From IMG/VR virus record IMGVR_UViG_3300009509_000008, positions 1 through 64,000 of that record: DNA of 64,000 bases; one strand, written 5' to 3'. Below the pieces are notes generated by a model that ran no database searches, was not told where the DNA came from, and saw nothing but the letters and a program-made list of their open reading frames with translations. Positions 6,226 through 61,173 of the stretch are shown here, one piece after another; within the stretch, counting starts at the first letter, position 1, and every line of letters begins with the position of its first letter. Origin of the DNA: a virus. The position numbers and the translations under genes were made by a program.

Positions 6226-9200
6226 ATGAGCGTTTACGGACAATTCTACTACGGAACCGCACTCTACGGGCTGGCGGGTCTCCCAGTGTCACCGGACTTC
6301 CACGTCTTTGACTTCTGTTACCCCACCGATGCTGTGATGACTCACCTCTTCGCCTACCCGCAAGTATCGGCGTTTCGTGGTCTTGGTTCTCCTCACATCT
6401 ACTACAATCTCGACAACGACCTGTGCATGATGTGCGATGACCTGACGAACTCAGGCTTCCGCATGGATCTTCCAATCACGAACAACTTCACGCTGCAGTT
6501 CACCATCAAGTCGTCAGCGCTCCCAGAGGACTTCTCTTCTCCGACCTCGAATCGATTCTTCGTGGCGGCCTACAACCAATACACGAAGATGATAGGCGTG
6601 CTGCTCTCAGAGAATGGAGGAATTGCTCTGTCTCGAGACGGGGTGACCATCGACGACGTTCTTCCCGACTCGGCTGATCTCTTTGGTGACGGGAGCACCT
6701 ACTACACGTTTAGGTTGGCCGTCGATGCGGACGCCAACCGAGGTCACATCTACGTGACAGAGCGTGACCTCGTTCCAAGCATAGGCCACCAGCTTCAATA
6801 CTCGTTCCCTCTCCAAGACACTCCAGCTGGGTACACCGACTACATCCTCGTGGATGTCCTTGGCACATCGGTCGACCCTACGGCCGTCTGCATGGACTGC
6901 ATCAGGCTTCACAATGCGGTGGTGATGAACCACAGGCCGATCGCTGTTCCAGGTGACGACCAGACACGCTCTGAGGGACAGTATGCGGCGTTCGATGGGT
7001 CGGGAAGCTACGACCCCGATCCTGGTGATGTCATCCACCACTACTGGTGGACGATCACGGAGGCCCCAACTGGGGCTGAGATCGTAGTAGAGGGCTCCAA
7101 CGATACGGCAGCGGACGCCTCGGGGTACACGAATAAGCTCACTGGATCAGCTGGTGACTTCTCAGATATAACGCAGGGCGACTTGTTGATGATCGGAGAT
7201 TACAAGTCGCCCGTGATGTACGTATCCCCCGACGGAAGTTGGGTAGTGGCGATCGACCACGTGTTCCCTGCCGGAACGACGGATACTGAGTGGCTCTGTA
7301 TCAAGCAAGAGGTCTGGGATGGGGACTGGACTCCGAGTTCGATGCACGTAGTCCAGAGCTCGGAGACTGACCCGAGCACGCTCACTCCAACTGCAGGAGA
7401 CTCCTTCCTTGTTCTGCCGGGAGCGGTGGGTCTCTGGCTCAACAAGCAGCACACGATCGCAACATGGACCGGAAGTGGGTGGTCCTTCACAGACCCAGAG
7501 GACGAGGACGTTCTGTATGACATCGCCGCAAACGTCTCGTATCGATACCTCTACCTACCTCCAGCTCCTCCTCCACACAACGGCGTATGGTATGCCGCAG
7601 AGCCTAAGCCGTGGGAGTTGGGGCACTGGTCAGGCAGGACCTCGAGCCTAGGCCGGATGTACGCTGCTGATAGGGGGCTCTACATCATCGAGCTCGTTGT
7701 CAACGACGGCGAGCTCGACAGCATCCCAGTAGAGGTCCTCCTCAATGTGTTTGTCACGGACGTGGCTCTTGGCCTCACGCCAGACCTCTCGTTCGTCTGG
7801 GATTACATCTCGGACTTCTGGGACATAGTCGAGGACAAGGAAAAGATAGAGAGCTTCTGGAGTGGATTCACGCAGCTTCTCTCTGGGGAGCTCCTTGCTC
7901 TGTGGCAGCACGACTACTCGAAGGACATCCTCAGCATCCAGAGGACCTTCCAACGTCAGTGGCTCAACTTCGATCCTCTGTACGACGAGCCCAACTACGA
8001 CGAGCTCCCGGCCGCCATCAACAACAGCGTCGACACATCAGGGTACAGCAGCACGCCGAATGTGCAGGTTCCTGATCCGACAGATCCCGTAACGTTGATC
8101 GACTCGACAACGGCCTACGATCTCGGTGCGCTGGTGAGCGGCATAACAGACGCAAACTCTCTAGTGTTGGGTGGCGTCTGCTATCAGATCCTTCGTGTGG
8201 AGGACGGCACAACGACGGTCGTCATCACGAAGGAGGAGATAACGACAGGTGCCGATCGACCAAAGGCCTGGATGATTCGACCAACTGTGAAATCACGATT
8301 CAGTGACTTCACAAAGCTCGGAGTAGTCGCCGGAGACAAGGCGATATTCGAGATCATCGACTCTGACGGAGACGCCTCCGAGCTGTCTGGCTACGTCTGG
8401 GGAGCTCGTGAGGGCGTGCTGGCATTCGACGACGAATCGATAGCAGCGTCGATCGCTGATCCTGATGTCACTGTCCGGTTCAAATCGATCTTTCGGCGTA
8501 CCAACATCCTCGTCGACGACTTAGTCGTTAGCATACCGAGACTGCAAGAGGTCATAGCGCTGGACCGAGTCGAGGGCGCCCCCGACCCTCTGCACGAGGC
8601 TAAGGACTTCCAGATACTCACGACGACAACTCTGCTGAATCAGGACGTCACGTGGATCGAGTTCCTCGAGGCGTGGTTTGAGCGCAAAGACTTCGGGTTC
8701 GACGGAGAGTATTCTGCGTCAAACCGGTTCAGCTCGGCGAGCGCAGACTTCACGAGCTCCTTGGGTGCGGTCGATACAGACCTGACGGGCTTCATTCTTG
8801 TGACTCCCGATGGACGGTTTCGTTTGAAGAAGGTCATCAGCTCCACCGAGCTCGAGCTCTACGATGCGTCCCTAGAGTCGGGACTAACGGATAAGGATTG
8901 GCAGATTCGAGAGATGATTGATCCGCCTGATAGCCTGTGGGCAGAGATCACCTTCCTCGACAATCGCCCGACGATCGAGGACAACTTCGGCCGTCTGATT
9001 GGATTCACCCTAGACGATCTCGAGGAGCGCACCGACAACCTCGACTACCTGTCGGCTGTCCAGGGACTGTGGTACGCAACGTGGTTCGGTCGAACTCTCG
9101 AGAACATCCGCATCGGCGCTCAGATCCTACTTGGCCTTCCATTCGCTGAGGTGGACGGAACAATCACGGATATCAAGTCCCCGTACGACTCCGTGAGAGA

Positions 9201-10869
9201 CCGAGTAATTCTCCAGGATGTCTCCGACGGCGCAACCGTCAGGGCGTACTACTACCCAACCGAGGTTGGGATCGCCGACAACCGGGACACTGGTGTCCCG
9301 CTACAGGTCGGTGACGTGGTCGATCAGTTCGACCCGCTGTCAAAGGGCGTTCAGGTAGATGACTGGGAGAGTATCCCAAACTGGGCAAATCCGTACATCG
9401 GATCGGGCGACATGCACGAGGTCCAGAAGATCCACACCTTCTTGGTAAAGGTAAGCTCCGACGTCTTCGACCTCACGAACCTGACGTTCCTAATAAGCTT
9501 CCTCCTGAGAATCAAGCCCCGCTATGTCTACCCGATATTCGCTGTTGTGAAGCAGCTCATCGACAACGTCGACGTCGGTGACTCCACGGTCTTTGGACCA
9601 GCTATACCGGTGAGTGGATCATATCCGAGTACCTGGCCGACCTTTGAGCCAACGCTTGGATGGAGCGAGCCTGGCCCGAACGAGGAGAACGCTGTAGCGG
9701 CTATCAATCGTGTTGCCCCTCCTATCTTTGATATCACGACAAGGTGGCCAAATGATCGATTCGTCACTCCTCGGATGTGGGAACCGGACAACCCGTTCGG
9801 AAACCTACACCTACAAGATAGTCCAGGAAGGACGCCAGATGGGTGGGTAGGGGACTGGAATGGACTGCCCGATCACCACGACGCAACAAGGGATGAGGGG
9901 CCACGGCGATACGACGCCACTGATGAGAGCGGACACTACATCCACAAGTACGATCCGCAGCTAACATGGAAGCAGCTCAGCGGTACGAACGGAGGATTTA
10001 TAAGGTTTGTTGGTGGTGAGGGCGGCTTCACTTATCTGGGCCACTTCTTTGCTGAGACGGGAGCCGGGTTTACCCCAGACGTTGTCGGCGAGTACATCAC
10101 AATATCGGGAGGCCCCGATCCAACTGACAACGGCACCTTCTTGATCACTAACTACTACAACCCCGACAACATAATGTACTGGAATCCGGCGGGGGTAACG
10201 CCGAGCGTAGTAAGCGGCATCACGTGGGAAATCTCTGGTGGGGTGCAGACTTACATCGACGACTACCTGGCTGCTCGTGACGGGCACATGGAAGATGCAC
10301 TCACGACATACTGGCCCCAGATTGGGTCTCCGAGCACGTTTGTGAAGGTTGGTTCCCCAGTCAAAACGGGGACCAAAAGCCTCCACGTAGTGTGTGCGGC
10401 GGATGAAGGAGCGTACAACGAGTTCGGAGCGAGCGCATCAGATGACACCCCTACGATCCACACAGTGCCCGCTGACCCGGCGTCTCCGGATGGTGGAGCT
10501 CCTGGGTTTCAAGTTGCGGTGACGGGATGGATTCGCATAGTAAGTGGTCTCGTTACGATGCGGCTACGTGATCAAGACGGAACGACCTACATTGCTGAGG
10601 TGAGAAGGAACCAACCAAACCACACGTGGCTGCGTTTTGTTCTACATCACTGGCACTTCCACGGCTCGAGCTCGCCACTGCGGTTCGAGGTCGTCGCCGG
10701 CGCCGGCGGAGCGGAGTTCTACCTTGATGGGGTGGAGGCGTTCATAAAGGCTGTGCCTTGGTCGCAGGTTGGGTATGACAGATCAATCGGCGGAAGAACT
10801 GGTGGGTACACGGTGGGCGGTGATCCTGACGAGTTCTTCCAGGTGCGGATGCACATCTTAGTTCCATGA
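6226..10869 (+). CDS. 1547-aa multidomain tail-tip/baseplate protein
   Basis: Starts after TAGGATC. Domains in order: an N-terminal β-rich region (1-230); a PKD-like domain (about 240-520, YAAFDGSGSYDPDPGDVIHH to DRGLYIIELVVNDGELDS) that appears split by a shared module and a DUF2793-like insert (DSFLVLPGAVGLWLNKQHTI then ATWTGSGWSF); an aromatic/acidic helical section (about 525-600, FVWDYISDFWDIVEDKEKI) typical of long phage tail proteins; several further copies of the roughly 65-residue module (for example residues about 690-750, 830-900 and 1265-1340); and a C-terminal β-domain. Likely a tail-hub or fibre-network protein. The PKD and DUF2793 assignments rest on motif resemblance. Confidence 0.8.
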   Translation: MSVYGQFYYGTALYGLAGLPVSPDFHVFDFCYPTDAVMTHLFAYPQVSAFRGLGSPHIYYNLDNDLCMMCDDLTNSGFRMDLPITNNFTLQFTIKSSALPEDFSSPTSNRFFVAAYNQYTKMIGVLLSENGGIALSRDGVTIDDVLPDSADLFGDGSTYYTFRLAVDADANRGHIYVTERDLVPSIGHQLQYSFPLQDTPAGYTDYILVDVLGTSVDPTAVCMDCIRLHNAVVMNHRPIAVPGDDQTRSEGQYAAFDGSGSYDPDPGDVIHHYWWTITEAPTGAEIVVEGSNDTAADASGYTNKLTGSAGDFSDITQGDLLMIGDYKSPVMYVSPDGSWVVAIDHVFPAGTTDTEWLCIKQEVWDGDWTPSSMHVVQSSETDPSTLTPTAGDSFLVLPGAVGLWLNKQHTIATWTGSGWSFTDPEDEDVLYDIAANVSYRYLYLPPAPPPHNGVWYAAEPKPWELGHWSGRTSSLGRMYAADRGLYIIELVVNDGELDSIPVEVLLNVFVTDVALGLTPDLSFVWDYISDFWDIVEDKEKIESFWSGFTQLLSGELLALWQHDYSKDILSIQRTFQRQWLNFDPLYDEPNYDELPAAINNSVDTSGYSSTPNVQVPDPTDPVTLIDSTTAYDLGALVSGITDANSLVLGGVCYQILRVEDGTTTVVITKEEITTGADRPKAWMIRPTVKSRFSDFTKLGVVAGDKAIFEIIDSDGDASELSGYVWGAREGVLAFDDESIAASIADPDVTVRFKSIFRRTNILVDDLVVSIPRLQEVIALDRVEGAPDPLHEAKDFQILTTTTLLNQDVTWIEFLEAWFERKDFGFDGEYSASNRFSSASADFTSSLGAVDTDLTGFILVTPDGRFRLKKVISSTELELYDASLESGLTDKDWQIREMIDPPDSLWAEITFLDNRPTIEDNFGRLIGFTLDDLEERTDNLDYLSAVQGLWYATWFGRTLENIRIGAQILLGLPFAEVDGTITDIKSPYDSVRDRVILQDVSDGATVRAYYYPTEVGIADNRDTGVPLQVGDVVDQFDPLSKGVQVDDWESIPNWANPYIGSGDMHEVQKIHTFLVKVSSDVFDLTNLTFLISFLLRIKPRYVYPIFAVVKQLIDNVDVGDSTVFGPAIPVSGSYPSTWPTFEPTLGWSEPGPNEENAVAAINRVAPPIFDITTRWPNDRFVTPRMWEPDNPFGNLHLQDSPGRTPDGWVGDWNGLPDHHDATRDEGPRRYDATDESGHYIHKYDPQLTWKQLSGTNGGFIRFVGGEGGFTYLGHFFAETGAGFTPDVVGEYITISGGPDPTDNGTFLITNYYNPDNIMYWNPAGVTPSVVSGITWEISGGVQTYIDDYLAARDGHMEDALTTYWPQIGSPSTFVKVGSPVKTGTKSLHVVCAADEGAYNEFGASASDDTPTIHTVPADPASPDGGAPGFQVAVTGWIRIVSGLVTMRLRDQDGTTYIAEVRRNQPNHTWLRFVLHHWHFHGSSSPLRFEVVAGAGGAEFYLDGVEAFIKAVPWSQVGYDRSIGGRTGGYTVGGDPDEFFQVRMHILVP

Positions 10870-18259: not shown

Positions 18260-20530
18260 ATGAGCGTACCTCTACACGAGGCCATCGAGGAGTTCGCCAA
18301 GCTTGCTGAGATTGATCTCAACGAGTTTCATCGACTGAGCAAGAAGAACGTCTTCAACAGGCTCGAGACATTCCTCACACCAAAGATCCCAGAGGAAGAT
18401 CCAGACCTTGCTCAGAAAGCTCAAGCAGCAACGCAGGCAGAGAGGGAATACTTCAAGAAGCGCTACAACGTCACTGCTCGACTCACCGGCTCGATGCCAC
18501 TCAAACTGGGGGTTCCAGGTGACGTTGATCTTGACTTCTACTCCCGGATCAAAAGTCCCCAGAAGTTCAATCAGGTCGTGGCTCGACTTGAGAAGAACCC
18601 CAACTACATCGGGAGCCAGTACAACAAGCCGGGCGCCGCCTTCCAGGTCTACCAAAGGAAGGCTCGTGGGAAGGACGACTTTCCGGTCGACTTCGCAATT
18701 GCCTATGGCCCGGACGCTGATCGTCTATCTGGTCAGATAAACGAGAAGGAACGAGCAGCGGCCGAGCTCCCGAAGGAGCTGAGAGAAGCTCTGGTGGCCA
18801 AGAAGCTGATCCTCAAGAACACGCCCTTTGACATCAAGCACAAGCGCTACAAGGCTTGGAAGCGGAACTTGGACAAGGCCCTCGGAGGCGAGGCCATCCG
18901 CCTCAAACGAGAGCCACACCCTGATCTTCTCGCTGATCTAGAAAAGAAGGCGGTCAGTGCTGAGGACATAGCTGGTGCCGCAAGGAGGATTGGAGCCAAG
19001 GTCATCCCAGACGATACGCTGAAGGCCTTCGGTGCTTTTGCCTCTCCGACGAGAGCTCAGATGAAGAAGGTCGTCAGGATGGGGACGCCCGATTGGCAGA
19101 AGGGGATGCTTCCAGAGGCGATGGAGCAGTCCCTAGAGAAGATCCTACGTGAAAGTCCAGGAGAGGTATTCGTGGAGCCGGGAGCGGGGAGGATACTTTC
19201 TCCTACGGCAACTGGAAAAACGCTGAAGCAACTGGATGAGATCGCCGCAGTACATGAGGGGCTAGAGCGTAGTGTAAAGCCGCATGAGATACAGTACTCA
19301 TCTCTGCATCTGAGCCCCAAGGTGCCAGCACAAGAGCTGAACCTGATCAATAGGGCTACTCCGGATCTGTCAGAAGCGGCCGAAAGACTTCGATCGCTAC
19401 GTGAAGCTGGAGGCGAGCACGGCCTCCTACGTCAGCAACTGCAGGAGCAGTTCGGCGAGCGTGCCGAAGAGTTCATGCAGCCGGGGAGGAAGATCCCGAA
19501 GGCGATGATGAAACGCCTCACCGGTGCCCAGCGACCAGAAATCTCTAAGCCGCAGGCGTACAAGATGATGGGAGGAGCGCAGCAGCACTTGGTAGAAGAG
19601 GCCCAGCGTGGTTTTCCTGAGCCTCGCATAAAGAGCCGAAGGGTCACTGAGAGCGTTCTGAGCCCGGACGACCCATCCATTCCAGCAGATGTGCGTGCCC
19701 AGCTACAGAAGTCAGCGGAGGTCATGGACCTCACCAAGCCCGAAGACTTCACGAAGTTCCAGAAGTTCGTTTCTCGTCAGGACATCTACGGGCATCGTAC
19801 CCCGCACGCCGAGGCGGTTCTCGGTAGCGGAAAGATCATCTCTGCTCTCGAGGCTTTGCAGAAAGGTAAGATCAAGAGCGTGGAGACTGGGCGTGGTGTA
19901 GGGGCTCGCAAAGATATCAGCATCGACAACAAGCTCACCAGCACGCAGATACAGGGGCTCAAGGATGCTCTCCTTGTTCCTACAACGACCAAGGTCGATT
20001 CCGACAAGGCAGCCGACATCGCCTCAGAGGCTGGGATGGAGTACAACGAAATGATGGCTGAGTTCCTCCGCCGGAAGAAGGGGGACATCAAGAAGCACCT
20101 TGGCACAGTGAGCGATCCAGAGGAGTTTCGGCGCAGTCACTTGAGCATACCCAAGCTCGGACCCAACATCTTCGTCACCAAGGGAGGGCTCATGGATGAG
20201 CCCAAGTACGGAGACGTTGGGCTTCTGATCCGATCCAGAACAGCCAAGCCCTCACCATTCGCCAACACGCTTACAGATGAGCACATCATTGAGCAGAGAA
20301 AGCCTGGTGATCCACGAAGCGTCAGCGTTCGCTCAAGCCTAGTCATAGCTCCGCAAGCAAAGGTCAGAACTCTCAGTCGGAAGTTCCCAGGCTACAAATT
20401 CGTCAAGGAGGAGCAAATCCCTGACGAGCTAAGAAAAGTGCTCTACAAACCAACTCGCTCTCCCAAAGAGATAGCGACACGTATCATTCCAAAGCTTCTC
20501 AGCGGGGAGCTTCGTCTCCAGCATAGGTGA
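18260..20530 (+). CDS. nucleotidyltransferase-fold virion protein, possible ejected effector
   Basis: 756 residues. The N-terminus (EEFAKLAEI, residues 10-18) resembles the EKxA tag. Residues about 75-150 carry the pol-β superfamily signature GSMPLKLGVPGDVDLDF (GS then DhDh) with a third acidic site in FPVDFAIAY, as in minimal nucleotidyltransferases. A second EKKA site occurs at about 230. The C-terminal third has YGHRTPHAEAVLGSGKI and later YGDVGLLI, loosely like ADP-ribosyl/phosphotransferase folds (weak). Last gene of the plus operon. T4 Alt is an example of a packaged modifying enzyme; an equivalent role here is inference. Confidence 0.65.
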   Translation: MSVPLHEAIEEFAKLAEIDLNEFHRLSKKNVFNRLETFLTPKIPEEDPDLAQKAQAATQAEREYFKKRYNVTARLTGSMPLKLGVPGDVDLDFYSRIKSPQKFNQVVARLEKNPNYIGSQYNKPGAAFQVYQRKARGKDDFPVDFAIAYGPDADRLSGQINEKERAAAELPKELREALVAKKLILKNTPFDIKHKRYKAWKRNLDKALGGEAIRLKREPHPDLLADLEKKAVSAEDIAGAARRIGAKVIPDDTLKAFGAFASPTRAQMKKVVRMGTPDWQKGMLPEAMEQSLEKILRESPGEVFVEPGAGRILSPTATGKTLKQLDEIAAVHEGLERSVKPHEIQYSSLHLSPKVPAQELNLINRATPDLSEAAERLRSLREAGGEHGLLRQQLQEQFGERAEEFMQPGRKIPKAMMKRLTGAQRPEISKPQAYKMMGGAQQHLVEEAQRGFPEPRIKSRRVTESVLSPDDPSIPADVRAQLQKSAEVMDLTKPEDFTKFQKFVSRQDIYGHRTPHAEAVLGSGKIISALEALQKGKIKSVETGRGVGARKDISIDNKLTSTQIQGLKDALLVPTTTKVDSDKAADIASEAGMEYNEMMAEFLRRKKGDIKKHLGTVSDPEEFRRSHLSIPKLGPNIFVTKGGLMDEPKYGDVGLLIRSRTAKPSPFANTLTDEHIIEQRKPGDPRSVSVRSSLVIAPQAKVRTLSRKFPGYKFVKEEQIPDELRKVLYKPTRSPKEIATRIIPKLLSGELRLQHR

Positions 20531-20535
20531 GTAAA

Positions 20536-20579
20536 AGGAGCACCAGTAGGGCGCTCCTCCCGGCCATTCGTCGGCCGGG
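20536..20579 (-). terminator. double hairpin terminator
   Basis: CCCGGCC/GGCCGGG (20559-20565 with 20573-20579, loop 7) directly abuts AGGAGC/GCTCCT (20536-20541 with 20553-20558). Read on the minus strand the second hairpin is followed by TTTACTC, giving a plausible intrinsic terminator for the ncRNA. It lies 6 bases after the stop of the plus-strand gene ending at 20530 and may work on both converging transcripts. Confidence 0.55.
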
Positions 20580-20671
20580 TAACGTGACGGGGCATCTCCG
20601 CCGGTGCCTCTGCGCACCTTTCTACTCCTCCCATTACGGCGTCGGTGGGGGTCGGTCACCAGGCCGTTCGA

Positions 20672-20680
20672 CTTATACGC
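20672..20680 (-). promoter_or_regulatory. GCGTATAAG promoter-like motif
   Basis: A minus-strand match to the GCTATAAG family, inside the ncRNA region and about 135 bases before its terminator. It could drive a second short transcript. Weaker case than the copies that precede genes. Confidence 0.3.
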
Positions 20681-21097
20681 TTAGGGCACTGCCCGTACGA
20701 GGCGACTAGGAACTGGATCTCCGGTGGTCCTTCGCACCTTGGCTAGGGAGGAGTGAAACGGAGAGGAAGCCGTCACGGCTTTGACTCGGTCTGTCGCCAT
20801 CTGCTGATCTTTTCGGTAAATGGGCCCCACTCTTCGCAGAGTATTCGGGGTACTCCCGTCGATCCTATTTCGATCAAACAAATCGCCGCACCCAGAATCT
20901 TGGCTAGGCTTTCCGTCTCCAATATTCTAATACCCAAAACGTGCCTGTTTTTGCATACTAAAAGCGAGCGATCTGGGGATCCGCTACCTCAGTCGGATTG
21001 ACTCTTCATCACTCTCGCTCCAAGTCGAAACCTTGCCTCTCACGGCCAGACTCCTTCACGTGGTACTCCTATCGTTTCCCTCGTGGGCAGATCGCTC

Positions 21098-21163
21098 TAG
21101 CGAGGCGGGAGTCGAACCCGCAACACACACCTTTCGGCTGCTCTACCATTGAGCTACTCGCTT
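21098..21163 (-). tRNA. tRNA-like element lacking a normal anticodon arm
   Basis: Minus strand, 66 nt. The acceptor is AAGCGAG against CTCGCTA (six pairs, A-A mismatch at 1-72). U8-A9 are present, the D arm is GCTC-AATGGTA-GAGC, and the T arm is GCGGG-TTCGACT-CCCGC, all canonical. Between the D and T arms are only 18 nt, which fold at best as GCC-GAAA-GGT, a GNRA-capped 3-bp hairpin, so there is no anticodon loop. No CCA is encoded. It therefore cannot decode. It may be a degraded tRNA or, more interestingly, a tRNA-mimic domain of a longer RNA. Confidence 0.5.
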
Positions 21164-21282
21164 CAATACTCTAGTAACACAATGATCATCGTTTTTTGCA
21201 GGTAAACGTCGCCGGCCCAAAACCTCCCAAACTCGGCTGACTCGGCGGGGCTTCGACATGTCACCACCTCCGCCTCAAACCT

Positions 21283-21290
21283 CTTATGCC
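21283..21290 (-). promoter_or_regulatory. GGCATAAG promoter-like motif
   Basis: Minus-strand GGCATAAG followed by AGGTTTGAG, nearly identical to the copy at 61173-61166 (GGCATAAGATTTTTGAG). It lies just beyond the terminator-like hairpin of the replication operon and upstream of the tRNA-like element, so it probably starts the ncRNA. Confidence 0.5.
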
Positions 21291-21310
21291 GATGTTGGGC
21301 TAAGAATTGT

Positions 21311-21346: not shown

Positions 21347-21469
21347 TTAGTAGTTTGCGAATTCCTTGCAGGAGAGAAGCACCCTGGTCAGAATGTGATC
21401 TCTGTCTTCACATCCATCGAGTGACGTGCCAGTCTCTTTTGCGAGAGCTCTGAGCTCGTCTTCCTCCAT
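21347..21469 (-). CDS. SAP-like small ORF, or displaced C-terminus of the upstream gene
   Basis: 40 residues from the first ATG; AAGGAG lies 12 bases upstream, a long spacing. The sequence MEEDELRALAKETG continuing to CEDRDHILTRVLL resembles a SAP-type helix-extension-helix DNA-binding motif. The frame is in phase with the upstream acidic gene and stays open for the 27 codons between that gene's TAG and this ATG, and those codons also look coding (VSDRFVKIEKEHLLN). It may be an independent small protein, a readthrough extension, or a remnant cut off by a nonsense mutation. Confidence 0.45.
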   Translation of the reverse strand: MEEDELRALAKETGTSLDGCEDRDHILTRVLLSCKEFANY

Positions 21470-38506: not shown

Positions 38507-38548
38507 AGAAATTCGACCTCCTTAGGTAACAGATGATCTCTCAGAAGC

Positions 38549-38556
38549 CTTATAGC
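38549..38556 (-). promoter_or_regulatory. GCTATAAG promoter-like motif, replication operon
   Basis: Minus-strand GCTATAAGGC 42 bases before the ATG of the first replication gene, in the divergent region between replication and head operons. No σ70 -35 hexamer is visible at normal spacing upstream. It is one of several copies of the motif in this window. Confidence 0.5.
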
Positions 38557-45008: not shown

Positions 45009-48000
45009 ATGGCAAGACTCGATCCCCGAGAGGGCTTTGACGTTCTCAAGGACAGGGTAACCGAGGCCATTTCGAGCAACTTCCCGCAAGAGGGAAGGTT
45101 CCATACGATAGAGCTCGAAGGCGTGCAGATCAAGGATGATCTGGACATAAATGATATCGAGAGCCAGAAGAAGGCTAAGCTTCGTGGAACTACCTTCGGC
45201 GTTCCGGTGACGGCCACCATGGTCTTGAAGGACAAGGCCTCCGGAAAGGTGATCGAGAAGAAGACGCTGAAGGTTGCTACCCTTCCCAAGTACACCAGAA
45301 GACATTCGTTCATCGTCAAGGGCTCGGAATACCAAGTCGACAGCCAATGGCGGCTGAAGCCTGGGATCTACACCAGGGTGGCTCAGAACGGTGAGCTTCA
45401 ATCTCGATTCAACTTCCAAGGCAAGCAAGCTTTGGATATGACCTTTGATCCGAAGACCAAGGTGTTCAGGATGAAGCACGGAGGATCTAAGCCTCCGCTG
45501 TACCCAATCCTCAAGGCGGTCGGAGTAGATGACGACACGATGCAGGCCGCTTGGGGTAAGGATATCCTGAACGCAAACAAGACAACCCCGAAGGGAAAGT
45601 CGCTCAACGTAGAGAAGCAGGCTGTGAACTTCGCTAAGCGCCTCGATCCACGAGCCGACATCAACTCGTTTGACGATGCGTCTGACGTTATTCGCAGCTA
45701 CATGGAGGATGCCGAGCTCCGTGAAGACGTTACCAAGCTGACTCTCGGCAAGGGCTTCAAGAAGATCACGCCGGAGGTGCTTACACGATCCTCCAAGAGG
45801 CTGCTCGGCGTAGCTCGTGGCGACGAGAAACCGGATGTCCGTGACGCCTTGATGTTCAAGGACCTGCTCAGCGTCGAGGACTTTATAGCTGAGCGTATGG
45901 GCGAGGGTACTAAGACCATTCAGCGGAGAATCGGAAACAATCTAGACCGGCGCAACACCCTCCGTGAGATCGTCGGTCCCGATGTTTTTGACAAACCCAT
46001 AAGAGAGTTCTTCTCCAAGAGCTCGCTTGCCAACACCCCGCAGCAGACGAACCCGCTCGAGATGCTAAGTGGCCAGCAGAGAACGACCATAACAGGCGAG
46101 GGTGGGGTCAAGGATGCCCACAAGATCATGGAGGACGCCAAGCTGGTGGACCCATCACACTTTGGTATCCTCGACCCACTCCACACACCAGAGTCCGATA
46201 AGACTGGTGTGTCGCTCCACCTCAGCACCAGCGCTGTGAAGAAGGGCAAGACCGTAGCTCTACCGCTCGTCAACGTGAAGACTGGAAAGGTAGAGCTCCT
46301 CGATCCCAAGCAGATCAACGAGTCAGTCATTGCCATGCCGGACGAGGGTCGGTGGAAGGACAACAGGTGGGTTCCAGGAGGAAGGAAGGTCAAGGCTTCT
46401 GTTCCGGGAAACGAGATCAGAGAGGTCAATTCCAAGGACGTCAAGTACGTCATGGGCAACACCGGCCAGATGTTCTCGATTGCTACGAACATGGTTCCGT
46501 TTCTGAACTCCGACTCGCCGAACCGCTCCACGATGGCAGGTAGGCACATGGAGCAGGCGATACCGCTCAAGAATCCAGAGGCCCCGCTGGTCCAGTCGGA
46601 TCGAGGAGATGGAAGATCGTACGACGAGTTCGTCGGCCGCTACGCTTCGCATGAGGCCCCTGTTGCTGGGAAGGTGACTAAGGTCGAACCTGGCGCCATC
46701 CATATCAAGGGGGCAGATGGGAAGAGCCAGAAGGTTCAGATCTACGACAACTATCCGCTGAACGACAAGAAGGGCGTCCTACACAGCACCCCAAAGGTCA
46801 AGGTGGGGGACCAGGTAAAGTCTGGCCAGCTCATCGCTGACAGTAACTACACCAAGGACGGAGTCTACGCACCTGGCACCAACATGCGTGTTGGATACAC
46901 TCCGTGGAAAGGCTACAACTTCGAGGACGGTGTTGTGATCTCGGAGACCGCCGCTCAGAAACTAACCTCCGAGCACCTGTACAAAAAGAGCCTCTCTACC
47001 AAAGAGGCTCAGGCTGTAGGTCTGAAGAAGTTCATGGCCAACAAGTCCACGTCTCTCACCAAGGAGCAGATGGAAAAGCTCGGAGACGACGGGATCATCA
47101 AGCCAGGCATGAAGGTTCACAAGGGGGACACGCTGATAGCGGCACTGGCAGAGAGGGCACCAACAACTGAAGCGCAGATGTTGAAGAACCTCCATCGAAG
47201 CCTGGCCAACCCCTACGACAACAGATCGATCACCTGGGACGAGGATCACGAAGGTGAGGTGGTCTCGATCAGCAAGAAGGGGAAGAACATACAAGTCCAC
47301 GTTCGCACAGCCGAGTCCATGCAGGTTGGCGACAAGCTCGTAGGTCGTCACGGAAACAAGGGAATCGTCACACGCATTCTCCCAGATCATGAGATGCCGC
47401 AGACGGAGGACGGCAAGTCCCTCGAGGTGGTCATGAATCCAATCGGCATCGCTGGTCGGATGAATGTTGGCCAGGTCCTCGAGACCGCAGCTGGTAAGCT
47501 GGCTGAGAAGGAGGGCAAGCCCTATAAGGTTCAGAACTTTGGCGAAGGCGATAACCGAACCAAGGTGGAGAAGGATCTGAAGAAAGCAAAGATCGCCGAC
47601 AAAGAGACAATCATCGATCCGGTGAACAACAAGAAAATCCCCGGCGTTCTGGTGGGCAACCAGTACATTCTCAAGCTCCAGCACCAGGTCGACAAGAAGA
47701 TGATGGCTCGATCAAGGGACGGGTACGACAGAAACCTCGTGCCCAAGGGTGGAGGACATCACGGAGCTCAGGCGCTCGGTTCCCTTGGAATCTATGCCAT
47801 GCTGGCTCACGGAGCTAAGGCCAACGTCCGTGAGATGCAGACGATGAAGAGTGACAAAGCTCAGAACGACGAGGTCTGGGCTGCACTCCAAGCCGGGGAG
47901 CCGATCCCTCCCCCACAAACGACCTTCGCCTACAAGAAGTTCGAGTCCTACCTAAAGGGTATGGGGATCAACGTAGAGAAGACAGGCAACTCCCTGAACC

Positions 48001-51000
48001 TCATGCCTATGACCGACAAGCAGGTTGTCGAAATGTCGAACGGAGAGCTCAAGGATGCTGGTCGAGCGATCCGTGGGTACAAGATCGGCTCCCAGCGCAA
48101 GGGGAACATAGAGCCGGAGAAGAGTGGGCTCTTTGATCCTAGGGTCACCGGCGGCCTCGACGGGATGAAGTGGAGCCACATATCCCTGAAGGAACCGATA
48201 CCGAACCCGGTCTTCGAGCGTGCTGTCAAGAGCGTGGCGGGGGTGAGGGGCCCTCAGTTCAACAGGATTATCAGCGGCGAAGACGGTGTGAAGGACGGAA
48301 ATATCGTGCCCCGTGGTACCAAGGGTGCGACGTTCGGTCCTCAGGCTATTGGATTGCTGCTCGACCAGGTGGATGTCAAGGGCGATCTCACCAAGCTGGA
48401 GCAAAAGATCGGCACGATGAAGGAGGGCCAGCCGCTAAATGAGGCTCGCCGAAAGATCAAGTACCTTCGTGCGCTGGACAAGCTGAACATGTCACCACGA
48501 GATGCGTACATGATGAAGAACGTGCCGGTGATGCCACCGGCCATGAGGCCGCTGTCTACCATGCAGGACGGAAGTCTGCAGTTCGACGACCTCAACCAGC
48601 TGTACAAAGACGTAGCTCTCCTAGATCAGCAGCTGCGTGAGCAGCCGAGTTACTCTCCGGAGAGCATCAAGGCAGAGCCTCGTTCCGACCTATACGATAG
48701 GATGAAAGCGCTCACTGGTATGGGCGGCACACTCAAGGACAGGTACAAGGGAATCGCCAACATCATATCAGGGGATAGTCCAAAGTACGGGTTCGCTCAA
48801 GACAAGCTGATCAAGAGAAAGCAGGACCTCACGATGAGGTCTACCATCGTGCCTGAGCCGTCGCTAAGCCTCGACGACATTGCTATCCCACGCAAGGCAG
48901 CTACCGAGCTGTACAAGCCGTTCGTCGTTCGTGAGATGCGAGTAGCAACTGGTATGGGCCCGCTAACCGCCAAGCAGCTCCTTGAGAAAGATCCGGACCA
49001 CCCAATGGTAAGGACGGCGCTCGATCGTGTCGTCGACGAACGTCCTCTCCTCGTGAAGCGTGATCCAGCACTGCACAAGTACAACATCCAGGCGTTTCGT
49101 CCGAAGCTCGTTGAGGGTAAAGCGATCAAGATCCATCCGCTTGTTTGCTCTGGGTACAACGCCGACTTCGATGGCGACACAATGAGCGCCTACGTCCCAA
49201 TGACCAATGAGGCGGTAGACGAAGCTCGCAAGATGTTTCCATCAAGGATACTGTTCAACCCGGCGACAGCCCGAGTGATGTACAGCCCGTCGCACGAAGC
49301 TCAGGTGGGCCTGTACATGAAGAGCGAAGTCGGCAAGAACTCGAGGCTCAGCTTCAACAACAACGAGGAGCTGAAGAAGGCCGTGACGGCTGGAAAGTTG
49401 GCGTCCAATGACATCGCTACGGTGGGTAAGGTCAAAACTACTCTGGATCGTATTGAGCTCGATTCTGCACTGCCGGAGAAGCTCCAAGGAGGCAAGCTCC
49501 TCACAGATCTGAAGTACCGGTTCACGAAGAGCGAACAAAACGATCTCTTCGGAGAGATGGCTAGGGCTGATAAGAACGGGTACGCCCAGAACATCGATCG
49601 CATGAAGGACATGGGGAACATGCGTGCGACCCACGGCGGATTCAGCTTCGGCCTCGAGGACTTCAAGGTCCACAAGAATATACGTGATCCACTCCTACGA
49701 ACCGCAGACGCCAAGGCTGCCAAGCTGAATCTTGACAAGCCACAGGACATGGAGAAGTTCGTCGAGATTTACGAAGGCGCCATGAAGAAGATGCAGAGCA
49801 AGCTCAAGGATCAAGCCAAGGCTGGTGTGAATCCGATCGACAAGCTCGAGGTCTCGGCTGGCATCAAGGGCAAGGGCTACGCCCAGCTGACTGGGGCGCC
49901 TGTGCTGTTCGTGGACGCCAAGGGAGAAGTCGTTCCGAGCCCAGTGAAGAAGTCCTACTCAGAGGGTCTGAGCGCAGCAGACTACTGGGCATCCGCAAGT
50001 GGAGGTCGGAAGGGAGTGGTGCAGAAGGTCCAGTCCGTCTCCGAGCCTGGGTATCTCACCAAGCTCATGATGAACAGCACTATGGACACGCTGATATCCA
50101 AGGAGGACTGTGGTACCGACAAGGGCATCAGCTTAGGTCTCGATGAGCCGGACATCGTTGGGCGCTTCACAACCTCGGCAGTGAAGGCGGGGCGCACTAC
50201 TATCCCAGAGAACACAATGCTCACCCCAGAGGTTGTCAACAAGATGCGGAACGCCAAGGTGTCCAGGGTCTTGGTCCGCTCACCAATGAGATGCCACCAC
50301 GCCAAGGGTGTGTGCAAGAAGTGTATGGGGCTGAACGAGAACGGGCAGCTCCACGATCTTGGGACGAATGTCGGGGTGCTGTCAGCACAGGCTATCGGTG
50401 AGAGAGGAACCCAGTTGGCGATGAAGGCCTTCCACAGCGGTGGCGTATTCGAGGGACGTACAGCTCAAGAGAAGTCCATCGCTGGTGGTGGGCTCGACAG
50501 AGCCATGACGATCCTGCACATGCCGAAGCAGGTGAAGGGATCGGCCAAGCTTGCCACAACGAACGGAAAGATAACGGCCATCAAGAAGGACCCAGCAGGT
50601 GGGTACAACGTTGTGATCGGTGATCAGACACACTACGTTCCTGCAGATCGTAATATCCTGACTAAGGTGAGGAAGGGCGCTACGGTAAAGAAGGGTGACC
50701 CCATCACGTCTGGTCCGATCAATCCGCATGAACTGCTACCGCTCACCAACATGAACAAGGTGCAGGGCTACCTAGCATCAGAGCTACACAGCATTTATGC
50801 TCCGGAGGGCATCCGAAGAAGGAACTCGGAGGTCGTAGTTCGAGCCTTGTCAGATGTCACAAAGATCGAAAACCCTGGGGACAACGAGGATTTCATCGTT
50901 GGGGATTTCGCTCCCACATCAGTCATCAACGAGTGGAACAAGAAGAATCGAAAGCAGGGACGGCTACCAGTTCGGCACACACCAGTGCTCAAAGGAGTGA

Positions 51001-51188
51001 AACAGATTCCATTGGATGTGCAGACCGACTGGCTAGCTCGATTGAATCACGAGAACTTGCGGGGTACTATCGTAGATGCGGCCCAGCAAGGCTGGGCAAG
51101 TCAGCTTCATGGCGATCACCCGATCCCTCCGCTGATCTACGGAGCCGAATTCGGGAAGGGAACGAAGGAGAAGCCGTGGGCCTACTAG
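45009..51188 (+). CDS. single-chain fused β-β' multisubunit-type RNA polymerase
   Basis: 2059 residues, one continuous frame. β half (about 1-1000): DPSHFGILDPLHTPES at 381, NMVPFLNSDSPNRSTM, GYNFEDGVVISE at 635, GRHGNKG at 779, NPIGIAGRMNVGQVLE and the KLQHQVDKKMMARS clamp. β' half: NIEPEKSGLFDPRV, VPVMPPAMRP, LVKRDPALHKYNIQAFRP, the catalytic NADFDGD at 1384-1390 (three Asp for Mg), GLSAADYW, zinc cysteines C1701/C1762/C1769/C1772 and trigger-loop QAIGERGTQLAMKAFH (His1809). The β' N-terminal zinc domain is missing. No α, ω or σ gene is seen. It should transcribe phage genes as a DNA-dependent RNA polymerase. Confidence 0.95.
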   Translation: MARLDPREGFDVLKDRVTEAISSNFPQEGRFHTIELEGVQIKDDLDINDIESQKKAKLRGTTFGVPVTATMVLKDKASGKVIEKKTLKVATLPKYTRRHSFIVKGSEYQVDSQWRLKPGIYTRVAQNGELQSRFNFQGKQALDMTFDPKTKVFRMKHGGSKPPLYPILKAVGVDDDTMQAAWGKDILNANKTTPKGKSLNVEKQAVNFAKRLDPRADINSFDDASDVIRSYMEDAELREDVTKLTLGKGFKKITPEVLTRSSKRLLGVARGDEKPDVRDALMFKDLLSVEDFIAERMGEGTKTIQRRIGNNLDRRNTLREIVGPDVFDKPIREFFSKSSLANTPQQTNPLEMLSGQQRTTITGEGGVKDAHKIMEDAKLVDPSHFGILDPLHTPESDKTGVSLHLSTSAVKKGKTVALPLVNVKTGKVELLDPKQINESVIAMPDEGRWKDNRWVPGGRKVKASVPGNEIREVNSKDVKYVMGNTGQMFSIATNMVPFLNSDSPNRSTMAGRHMEQAIPLKNPEAPLVQSDRGDGRSYDEFVGRYASHEAPVAGKVTKVEPGAIHIKGADGKSQKVQIYDNYPLNDKKGVLHSTPKVKVGDQVKSGQLIADSNYTKDGVYAPGTNMRVGYTPWKGYNFEDGVVISETAAQKLTSEHLYKKSLSTKEAQAVGLKKFMANKSTSLTKEQMEKLGDDGIIKPGMKVHKGDTLIAALAERAPTTEAQMLKNLHRSLANPYDNRSITWDEDHEGEVVSISKKGKNIQVHVRTAESMQVGDKLVGRHGNKGIVTRILPDHEMPQTEDGKSLEVVMNPIGIAGRMNVGQVLETAAGKLAEKEGKPYKVQNFGEGDNRTKVEKDLKKAKIADKETIIDPVNNKKIPGVLVGNQYILKLQHQVDKKMMARSRDGYDRNLVPKGGGHHGAQALGSLGIYAMLAHGAKANVREMQTMKSDKAQNDEVWAALQAGEPIPPPQTTFAYKKFESYLKGMGINVEKTGNSLNLMPMTDKQVVEMSNGELKDAGRAIRGYKIGSQRKGNIEPEKSGLFDPRVTGGLDGMKWSHISLKEPIPNPVFERAVKSVAGVRGPQFNRIISGEDGVKDGNIVPRGTKGATFGPQAIGLLLDQVDVKGDLTKLEQKIGTMKEGQPLNEARRKIKYLRALDKLNMSPRDAYMMKNVPVMPPAMRPLSTMQDGSLQFDDLNQLYKDVALLDQQLREQPSYSPESIKAEPRSDLYDRMKALTGMGGTLKDRYKGIANIISGDSPKYGFAQDKLIKRKQDLTMRSTIVPEPSLSLDDIAIPRKAATELYKPFVVREMRVATGMGPLTAKQLLEKDPDHPMVRTALDRVVDERPLLVKRDPALHKYNIQAFRPKLVEGKAIKIHPLVCSGYNADFDGDTMSAYVPMTNEAVDEARKMFPSRILFNPATARVMYSPSHEAQVGLYMKSEVGKNSRLSFNNNEELKKAVTAGKLASNDIATVGKVKTTLDRIELDSALPEKLQGGKLLTDLKYRFTKSEQNDLFGEMARADKNGYAQNIDRMKDMGNMRATHGGFSFGLEDFKVHKNIRDPLLRTADAKAAKLNLDKPQDMEKFVEIYEGAMKKMQSKLKDQAKAGVNPIDKLEVSAGIKGKGYAQLTGAPVLFVDAKGEVVPSPVKKSYSEGLSAADYWASASGGRKGVVQKVQSVSEPGYLTKLMMNSTMDTLISKEDCGTDKGISLGLDEPDIVGRFTTSAVKAGRTTIPENTMLTPEVVNKMRNAKVSRVLVRSPMRCHHAKGVCKKCMGLNENGQLHDLGTNVGVLSAQAIGERGTQLAMKAFHSGGVFEGRTAQEKSIAGGGLDRAMTILHMPKQVKGSAKLATTNGKITAIKKDPAGGYNVVIGDQTHYVPADRNILTKVRKGATVKKGDPITSGPINPHELLPLTNMNKVQGYLASELHSIYAPEGIRRRNSEVVVRALSDVTKIENPGDNEDFIVGDFAPTSVINEWNKKNRKQGRLPVRHTPVLKGVKQIPLDVQTDWLARLNHENLRGTIVDAAQQGWASQLHGDHPIPPLIYGAEFGKGTKEKPWAY

Positions 51189-61148: not shown

Positions 61149-61165
61149 GAATCACACTCAAAAAT

Positions 61166-61173
61166 CTTATGCC
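61166..61173 (-). promoter_or_regulatory. GGCATAAG promoter-like motif
   Basis: Minus-strand GGCATAAGATTTTTGAG, 60 bases before the ATG of the membrane/coiled-coil gene. It closely matches the motif ahead of the ncRNA region at 21290. Confidence 0.45.

What the first reader, a model, noticed from the sequence alone, without database searches (positions are those of the whole stretch)
20531..21300. Large structured non-coding RNA with promoter and terminator
A 770-base gap in an otherwise gap-free phage genome carries a promoter-like motif, a terminator, GNRA-capped hairpins and a tRNA-like part, all readable on the minus strand. Length and setting recall GOLLD and ROOL, giant phage RNAs reported to build multimeric RNA complexes. 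It may be a divergent member or a new class.
Basis: partly seen in the sequence, partly recalled or inferred. Interest (0 to 1): 0.75.

Follow-up and report, generated by a model that had tools for sequence, protein, structure and literature searches.

The report
Phage non-coding locus with anticodon-less tRNA
A phage carries an extra stretch of about 630 to 750 bases that codes for no protein and looks like a transcription unit starting near a tRNA missing its anticodon arm; whether the rest is a working large RNA like GOLLD or ROOL cannot be shown because no relative of it was found.

Summary
The observation mostly holds. Window 20531-21162 is the longest stretch with no coding signal in any frame. 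Its minus strand holds a tRNA-derived element (Rfam tRNA, 42 bits, E 1.5e-5) with acceptor, D and T arms, but the anticodon arm replaced by a 3-bp GAAA-capped hairpin. It ends in a terminator-like hairpin (-17 kcal/mol). A promoter-like motif, GGCATAAGA-NN-TTTGAG, lies at 21274-21290; it recurs exactly at 61157-61173, and a close version sits in the same junction of related phages. Kin with 62-63% identical RNA polymerase lack the segment: they have a 145-nt terminator or another gene there. It is therefore lineage-specific cargo beside a 756-aa nucleotidyltransferase-like gene. The GOLLD/ROOL reading is not supported: no Rfam match at E<=10, none with GOLLD or ROOL models, no homolog found. 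Folding energy is not informative: a real GOLLD in distant kin Vibrio phage D69 scores z = -0.5. Most likely this is an accessory non-coding transcript headed by an anticodon-less tRNA-like element; the rival is a decaying tRNA plus spacer. Covariation cannot be tested without relatives.

The parts
21274..21290 (-). promoter-like motif GGCATAAGAGGTTTGAG
   Evidence: Exact GGCATAAGA-NN-TTTGAG recurs once more, at 61157-61173 minus, upstream of a minus gene; weaker copies upstream of genes at 38556, 83776, 84420; a close version plus the following ~18 nt is kept in kin G003, G006, G025 at the same junction. Start of transcription is inferred.
21163..21267 (-). possible 34-aa basic-peptide ORF, stop codon ends on the first base of the tRNA-like element
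   Evidence: SD-like GGAGG before ATG; weak dicodon score 6.8; the start codon is not kept in kin. Uncertain.
21097..21163 (-). anticodon-less tRNA-like element: 6-bp acceptor, 4-bp D stem, 5-bp T stem, GCC-GAAA-GGU hairpin in place of the anticodon arm, no encoded CCA
   Evidence: Rfam RF00005 42.1 bits; fold reproduces the cloverleaf without anticodon arm; ARAGORN negative
20531..21096 (-). non-coding body of the putative RNA (~565 nt), purine-rich on this strand over much of its length
   Evidence: no coding frame; skews favour G and A on the minus strand, most clearly at 20800-21200; no homolog
20964..21099 (-). predicted domain closed by the 10-bp helix GAGCGATCTG/CAGATCGCTC just after the tRNA-like element
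   Evidence: not significant against shuffles (z -1.5)
20531..20625 (-). 3' end: tandem GC-rich hairpins, the last (20535-20559) terminator-like with UUUUA tail
   Evidence: z -4.6 for the 95-nt stretch and -5.4 for the last hairpin
18260..20530 (+). neighbouring 756-aa nucleotidyltransferase-like gene, convergent, also absent from close kin
   Evidence: a homolog in G032 has a weak Pfam NTP_transf_2 match (E 0.041, below cut-off)
21347..21469 (-). conserved 40-aa gene that marks the edge of the junction
   Evidence: similar small ORFs with a like C-terminal end (KEIVNY / REIVNY / KEFANY) in kin L238 and L235

Best explanation
An accessory non-coding transcription unit of this phage. Transcription on the minus strand starts at or near the phage-type promoter-like motif at 21290 and runs to the terminator-like hairpin at 20531, giving an RNA of about 740 nt. 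Near its 5' end lies a tRNA-like element that has lost the anticodon arm but keeps the acceptor, D and T arms. Because those parts are what RNase P and 3' tRNA nucleases read, the element most likely acts as a processing and stabilising head: it is cut out as a small tRNA mimic, or left on as a cap, and it sets the 5' end of a ~565-nt downstream RNA. The segment entered the phage together with, or beside, a 756-aa nucleotidyltransferase-like gene at a junction where kin carry other cargo. Shown: non-coding status, the tRNA-like element, the terminator hairpin, the recurrent promoter-like motif, absence from kin. Inferred: transcription, processing, and any function of the body.
For: Non-coding by dicodon score. 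tRNA-like element E 1.5e-5, D and T stems and six acceptor pairs fully paired. Terminator-like hairpin z -5.4. Promoter-like motif repeated exactly elsewhere and kept in close form at this junction in kin. Purine-rich minus strand over much of the region. Kin with 62-63% identical RNAP have only 145 nt or a C92 peptidase gene here. Anticodon-less tRNA-like elements recur in other viral contigs, and in two groups are conserved in sequence while the flanks diverge, so such elements can be kept.
Against: No transcript data. No homolog of the ~565-nt body in 50 kin records, GenBank phages or plasmids, and none by the few exact-pattern scans of IMG/VR and GTDB contigs that were possible. No excess folding stability outside the 3' hairpins. 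In kin the same motif is followed only by a short terminator region, so the motif alone does not show that a long RNA was selected. The first acceptor pair is A-A, and no CCA is encoded.
Confidence: 0.5

Rival explanations
1. Relic: a phage tRNA gene that lost its anticodon arm, stranded in neutral spacer left by recombination when the 756-aa cargo gene was gained. The terminator only ends the minus-strand operon before the convergent gene.
For: No homolog of the body; no stability above background; a similar anticodon-less tRNA sits inside a tRNA array (L204); many larger kin carry tRNA arrays; the junction is a cargo hot spot.
Against: D, T and six acceptor pairs are all intact, and the lost arm is replaced by a neat GNRA-capped hairpin rather than random decay. 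A non-coding stretch of this length is the longest in this dense genome.
Confidence: 0.34
2. A highly diverged GOLLD/ROOL-like giant RNA that builds a multimeric RNA cage.
For: Right length, phage setting, tRNA linkage; GOLLD can hold tRNAs in its linker (PMC12286853); distant kin phage D69 has a true GOLLD. The fold-energy test cannot exclude it.
Against: No match to RF02032 or RF03087 even at E<=10, while D69's GOLLD scores 186 bits; my reading of the sequence finds none of the conserved GOLLD 3' motifs seen (for example GUGGAUA, GUAAUCUCA).
Confidence: 0.06
3. The tRNA-like element alone is the functional product (a tRNA mimic or decoy, for instance against a tRNA-sensing or tRNA-cutting host defence), and the rest is trailer.
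For: Conserved stand-alone anticodon-less elements in other phages (group B). A tRNA without anticodon cannot be cut by anticodon nucleases (inference; phage tRNAs evading tRNA-targeting defences through anticodon loop changes are described in PMC10264068, seen as title and abstract).
Against: No evidence here for any host defence target; the trailer would be unusually long.
Confidence: 0.1

Closest known systems
GOLLD RNA (Rfam RF02032)
   Same: phage-borne, several hundred nt, tRNA-linked; present in distant kin Vibrio phage D69
   Different: no detectable sequence or structure match; here a single anticodon-less tRNA-like element near the 5' end, not a tRNA array
ROOL RNA (Rfam RF03087)
   Same: length and phage setting
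   Different: no detectable match at E<=10
Phage tRNA genes (RF00005)
   Same: acceptor, D and T arms match the tRNA model
   Different: no anticodon arm, so it cannot decode; part of a longer non-coding unit
tRNA-like processing heads such as mascRNA of MALAT1 (from memory)
   Same: a tRNA-like fold marking an end of a long non-coding RNA
   Different: eukaryotic, at the 3' end; processing not shown here

Membership tests
GOLLD | match to the conserved 3' region covariance model | tested here: not met
   no hit at E<=10 in 1.4 kb nor by direct search of the genome; control: D69 hit at 186 bits
GOLLD | linkage to phage tRNAs | tested here: inconclusive
   one anticodon-less tRNA-like element only; no tRNA array in the 88-kb contig
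GOLLD / ROOL | assembles into an RNA-only multimer | not testable with these tools
   needs cryo-EM or native gel
ROOL | match to the RF03087 model | tested here: not met
   No control genome rang, so the absence rests mainly
Large structured RNA in general | covarying base pairs among homologs | not testable with these tools
   no homolog found
tRNA | acceptor, D and T arms | tested here: met
tRNA | anticodon arm with anticodon | tested here: not met
   only 18 nt between D stem and T stem, where a standard tRNA has about 23; GCC-GAAA-GGU hairpin
tmRNA | tRNA-like domain joined from the 5' and 3' ends, with a tag ORF | tested here: not met
   ARAGORN and Rfam negative; the tRNA-like element is contiguous at the 5' side
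Group I/II intron, RNase P RNA | Rfam model match | tested here: not met

The most novel reading that the evidence does not exclude
A new class of large phage non-coding RNA headed by an anticodon-less tRNA-like element, carried as mobile cargo by phages with a fused beta-beta' RNA polymerase.
Probability: 0.13. Interest if true: 0.8.

Novelty: new variant of a known kind. Interest (0 to 1): 0.38.

Why it matters
Giant phage RNAs such as GOLLD and ROOL have known shapes but no known function, so each independent tRNA-linked large RNA would help. Even if the body is spacer, the anticodon-less tRNA mimic belongs to a recurrent kind of phage element, for which I found no description in the papers searched, that could bear on how phages handle host tRNA processing or tRNA-targeting defences.

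Tried and rejected
Rfam at relaxed threshold (only tRNA is credible; mir-485 and YrlA matches are chance). Sliding and whole-region folding z-scores, dropped as evidence after the GOLLD control scored z -0.5. BLASTN of the body against phages and plasmids and of the whole region against 50 kin; the apparent 15-mer hit shared by G003 and G006 lies inside the homolog of gene 6226-10869. Finding kin by PolA or by the 756-aa protein alone gave nothing. None of the 61 matched the body; convincing matches were limited to the tRNA-like part. A GAAA-hairpin pattern returned what look like class II tRNA variable arms and coding sequence. Small ORFs within the region have no convincing Pfam or PHROG match. 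Type III toxin-antitoxin was considered and rejected: no tandem repeats and convergent orientation.

Full report
What the window is. It is part of an 88,031-nt IMG/VR phage contig with a fused beta-beta' RNA polymerase of 2059 aa (45009-51188). Relatives with a full-length match include IMG/VR contigs with 62-63% identical polymerase (L124, L126, L129, L160). Isolates are more distant: Vibrio phages D69/D181/D148 and Salmonella phage Arash, about 31-34% identical. A lineage of phages with multi-subunit RNA polymerase is described in PMC7481178; I did not test whether this phage belongs to it. Gene order around the finding is well kept in kin.

The observation. The stretch 20531-21162 has no coding signal in any of six frames by a dicodon model trained on this phage and is the longest uncovered stretch. 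On the minus strand it holds, in 5'-3' order: a promoter-like motif at 21274-21290; a possible 34-aa ORF (21163-21267); a tRNA-like element at 21097-21163; a ~565-nt body; and tandem GC-rich hairpins, the last followed by UUUUA (20531-20560).

The tRNA-like element is real: Rfam tRNA, 42.1 bits, E 1.5e-5. It folds as a cloverleaf with six acceptor, four D and five T pairs, but the anticodon arm is replaced by GCC-GAAA-GGU. It therefore cannot decode a codon, and ARAGORN does not call it.

The promoter-like motif, GGCATAAGA-NN-TTTGAG, occurs exactly twice in the window (21290 and 61173, both minus strand, the second 68 nt before a gene). Weaker versions lie upstream of genes at 38556, 83776 and 84420. 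In kin G003, G006 and G025 a close version of the motif, and about 18 similar following bases, sit at the same junction just after a conserved 40-aa gene. A kin-only version of the motif ranks 21290 among the best sites. I infer that it is a phage-type promoter; no sigma-70 site was found.

Origin. In kin the junction holds a 145-nt terminator region (G003, G006), a C92-peptidase gene (G025), or other small genes. In this phage it holds the 756-aa nucleotidyltransferase-like gene (only two weak relatives among 50 kin) plus the non-coding segment. So the segment is lineage-specific cargo at a hot spot.

Is it a large structured RNA? The whole 660-nt fold is more stable than shuffles (z about -3 on both strands), but this comes from the 3' hairpins. 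Without them z is -1.3, within the range of coding controls. I then ran a positive control: the true GOLLD of D69 gives z -0.5. Fold energy is therefore silent on this question either way. Only covariation would decide, and no homolog of the body was found in 50 kin, in GenBank phages or in plasmids, nor by pattern scans of IMG/VR and GTDB contigs. Exact-pattern scans are weak tests, so absence of homologs is not proven.

Known families. GOLLD and ROOL models do not match, although distant kin D69 has a clear GOLLD in its tRNA array. tmRNA, RNase P RNA and introns are also excluded at Rfam level.

Context for the tRNA-like head. Anticodon-less tRNA-like elements recur in IMG/VR: 61 contigs match a strict pattern, which still includes some ordinary or degenerate tRNAs. 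Two groups are conserved: 11 contigs where it precedes a tRNA-like or tRNA gene, and 5 where it stands alone. This makes a kept function plausible for the head. None of these loci resembles the body of the present RNA.

Conclusion. The best reading is an accessory non-coding transcript headed by an anticodon-less tRNA-like element that could serve as an RNase P/3'-nuclease processing head. The main rival is a tRNA relic in spacer.

Noticed in passing
window 45009-51188 (+): Fused beta-beta' RNA polymerase of 2059 aa in one frame, with full-length relatives in many IMG/VR contigs.
   Followed up: partly
L320 (Vibrio phage D69), record 99273-99683 (-): An unannotated GOLLD RNA (186 bits) inside the tRNA array of phage D69; small hypothetical CDSs are annotated over it.
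   Followed up: yes
L265, L266, L268, L270, L275, L282, L295, L305, L310, L313, L316; and L264, L272, L276, L284, L301: Two conserved groups of anticodon-less tRNA-like elements in viral contigs: one just upstream of tRNA genes, one stand-alone followed by a conserved hairpin-like stretch.
   Followed up: partly
L294 6140-6540: Two tandem anticodon-less tRNA-like elements, each followed by a similar stretch ending in CATGTGAAATCCACCT, upstream of a gene that looks like an RtcB RNA ligase (7330-8529; recognised by eye, not searched).
   Followed up: partly
window 15393, 15739; contig position 76030; L235 9174 (-); L238 15662, 16617: Several otherwise different proteins share an N-terminal motif like SFFxELxKIA, possibly a virion targeting or cleavage signal.
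   Followed up: partly
window 61157-61173, 38540-38556; contig 83776 and 84420: Candidate phage-specific promoter motif GGYATAAGA-NN-TTTGAG, upstream of genes.
   Followed up: partly
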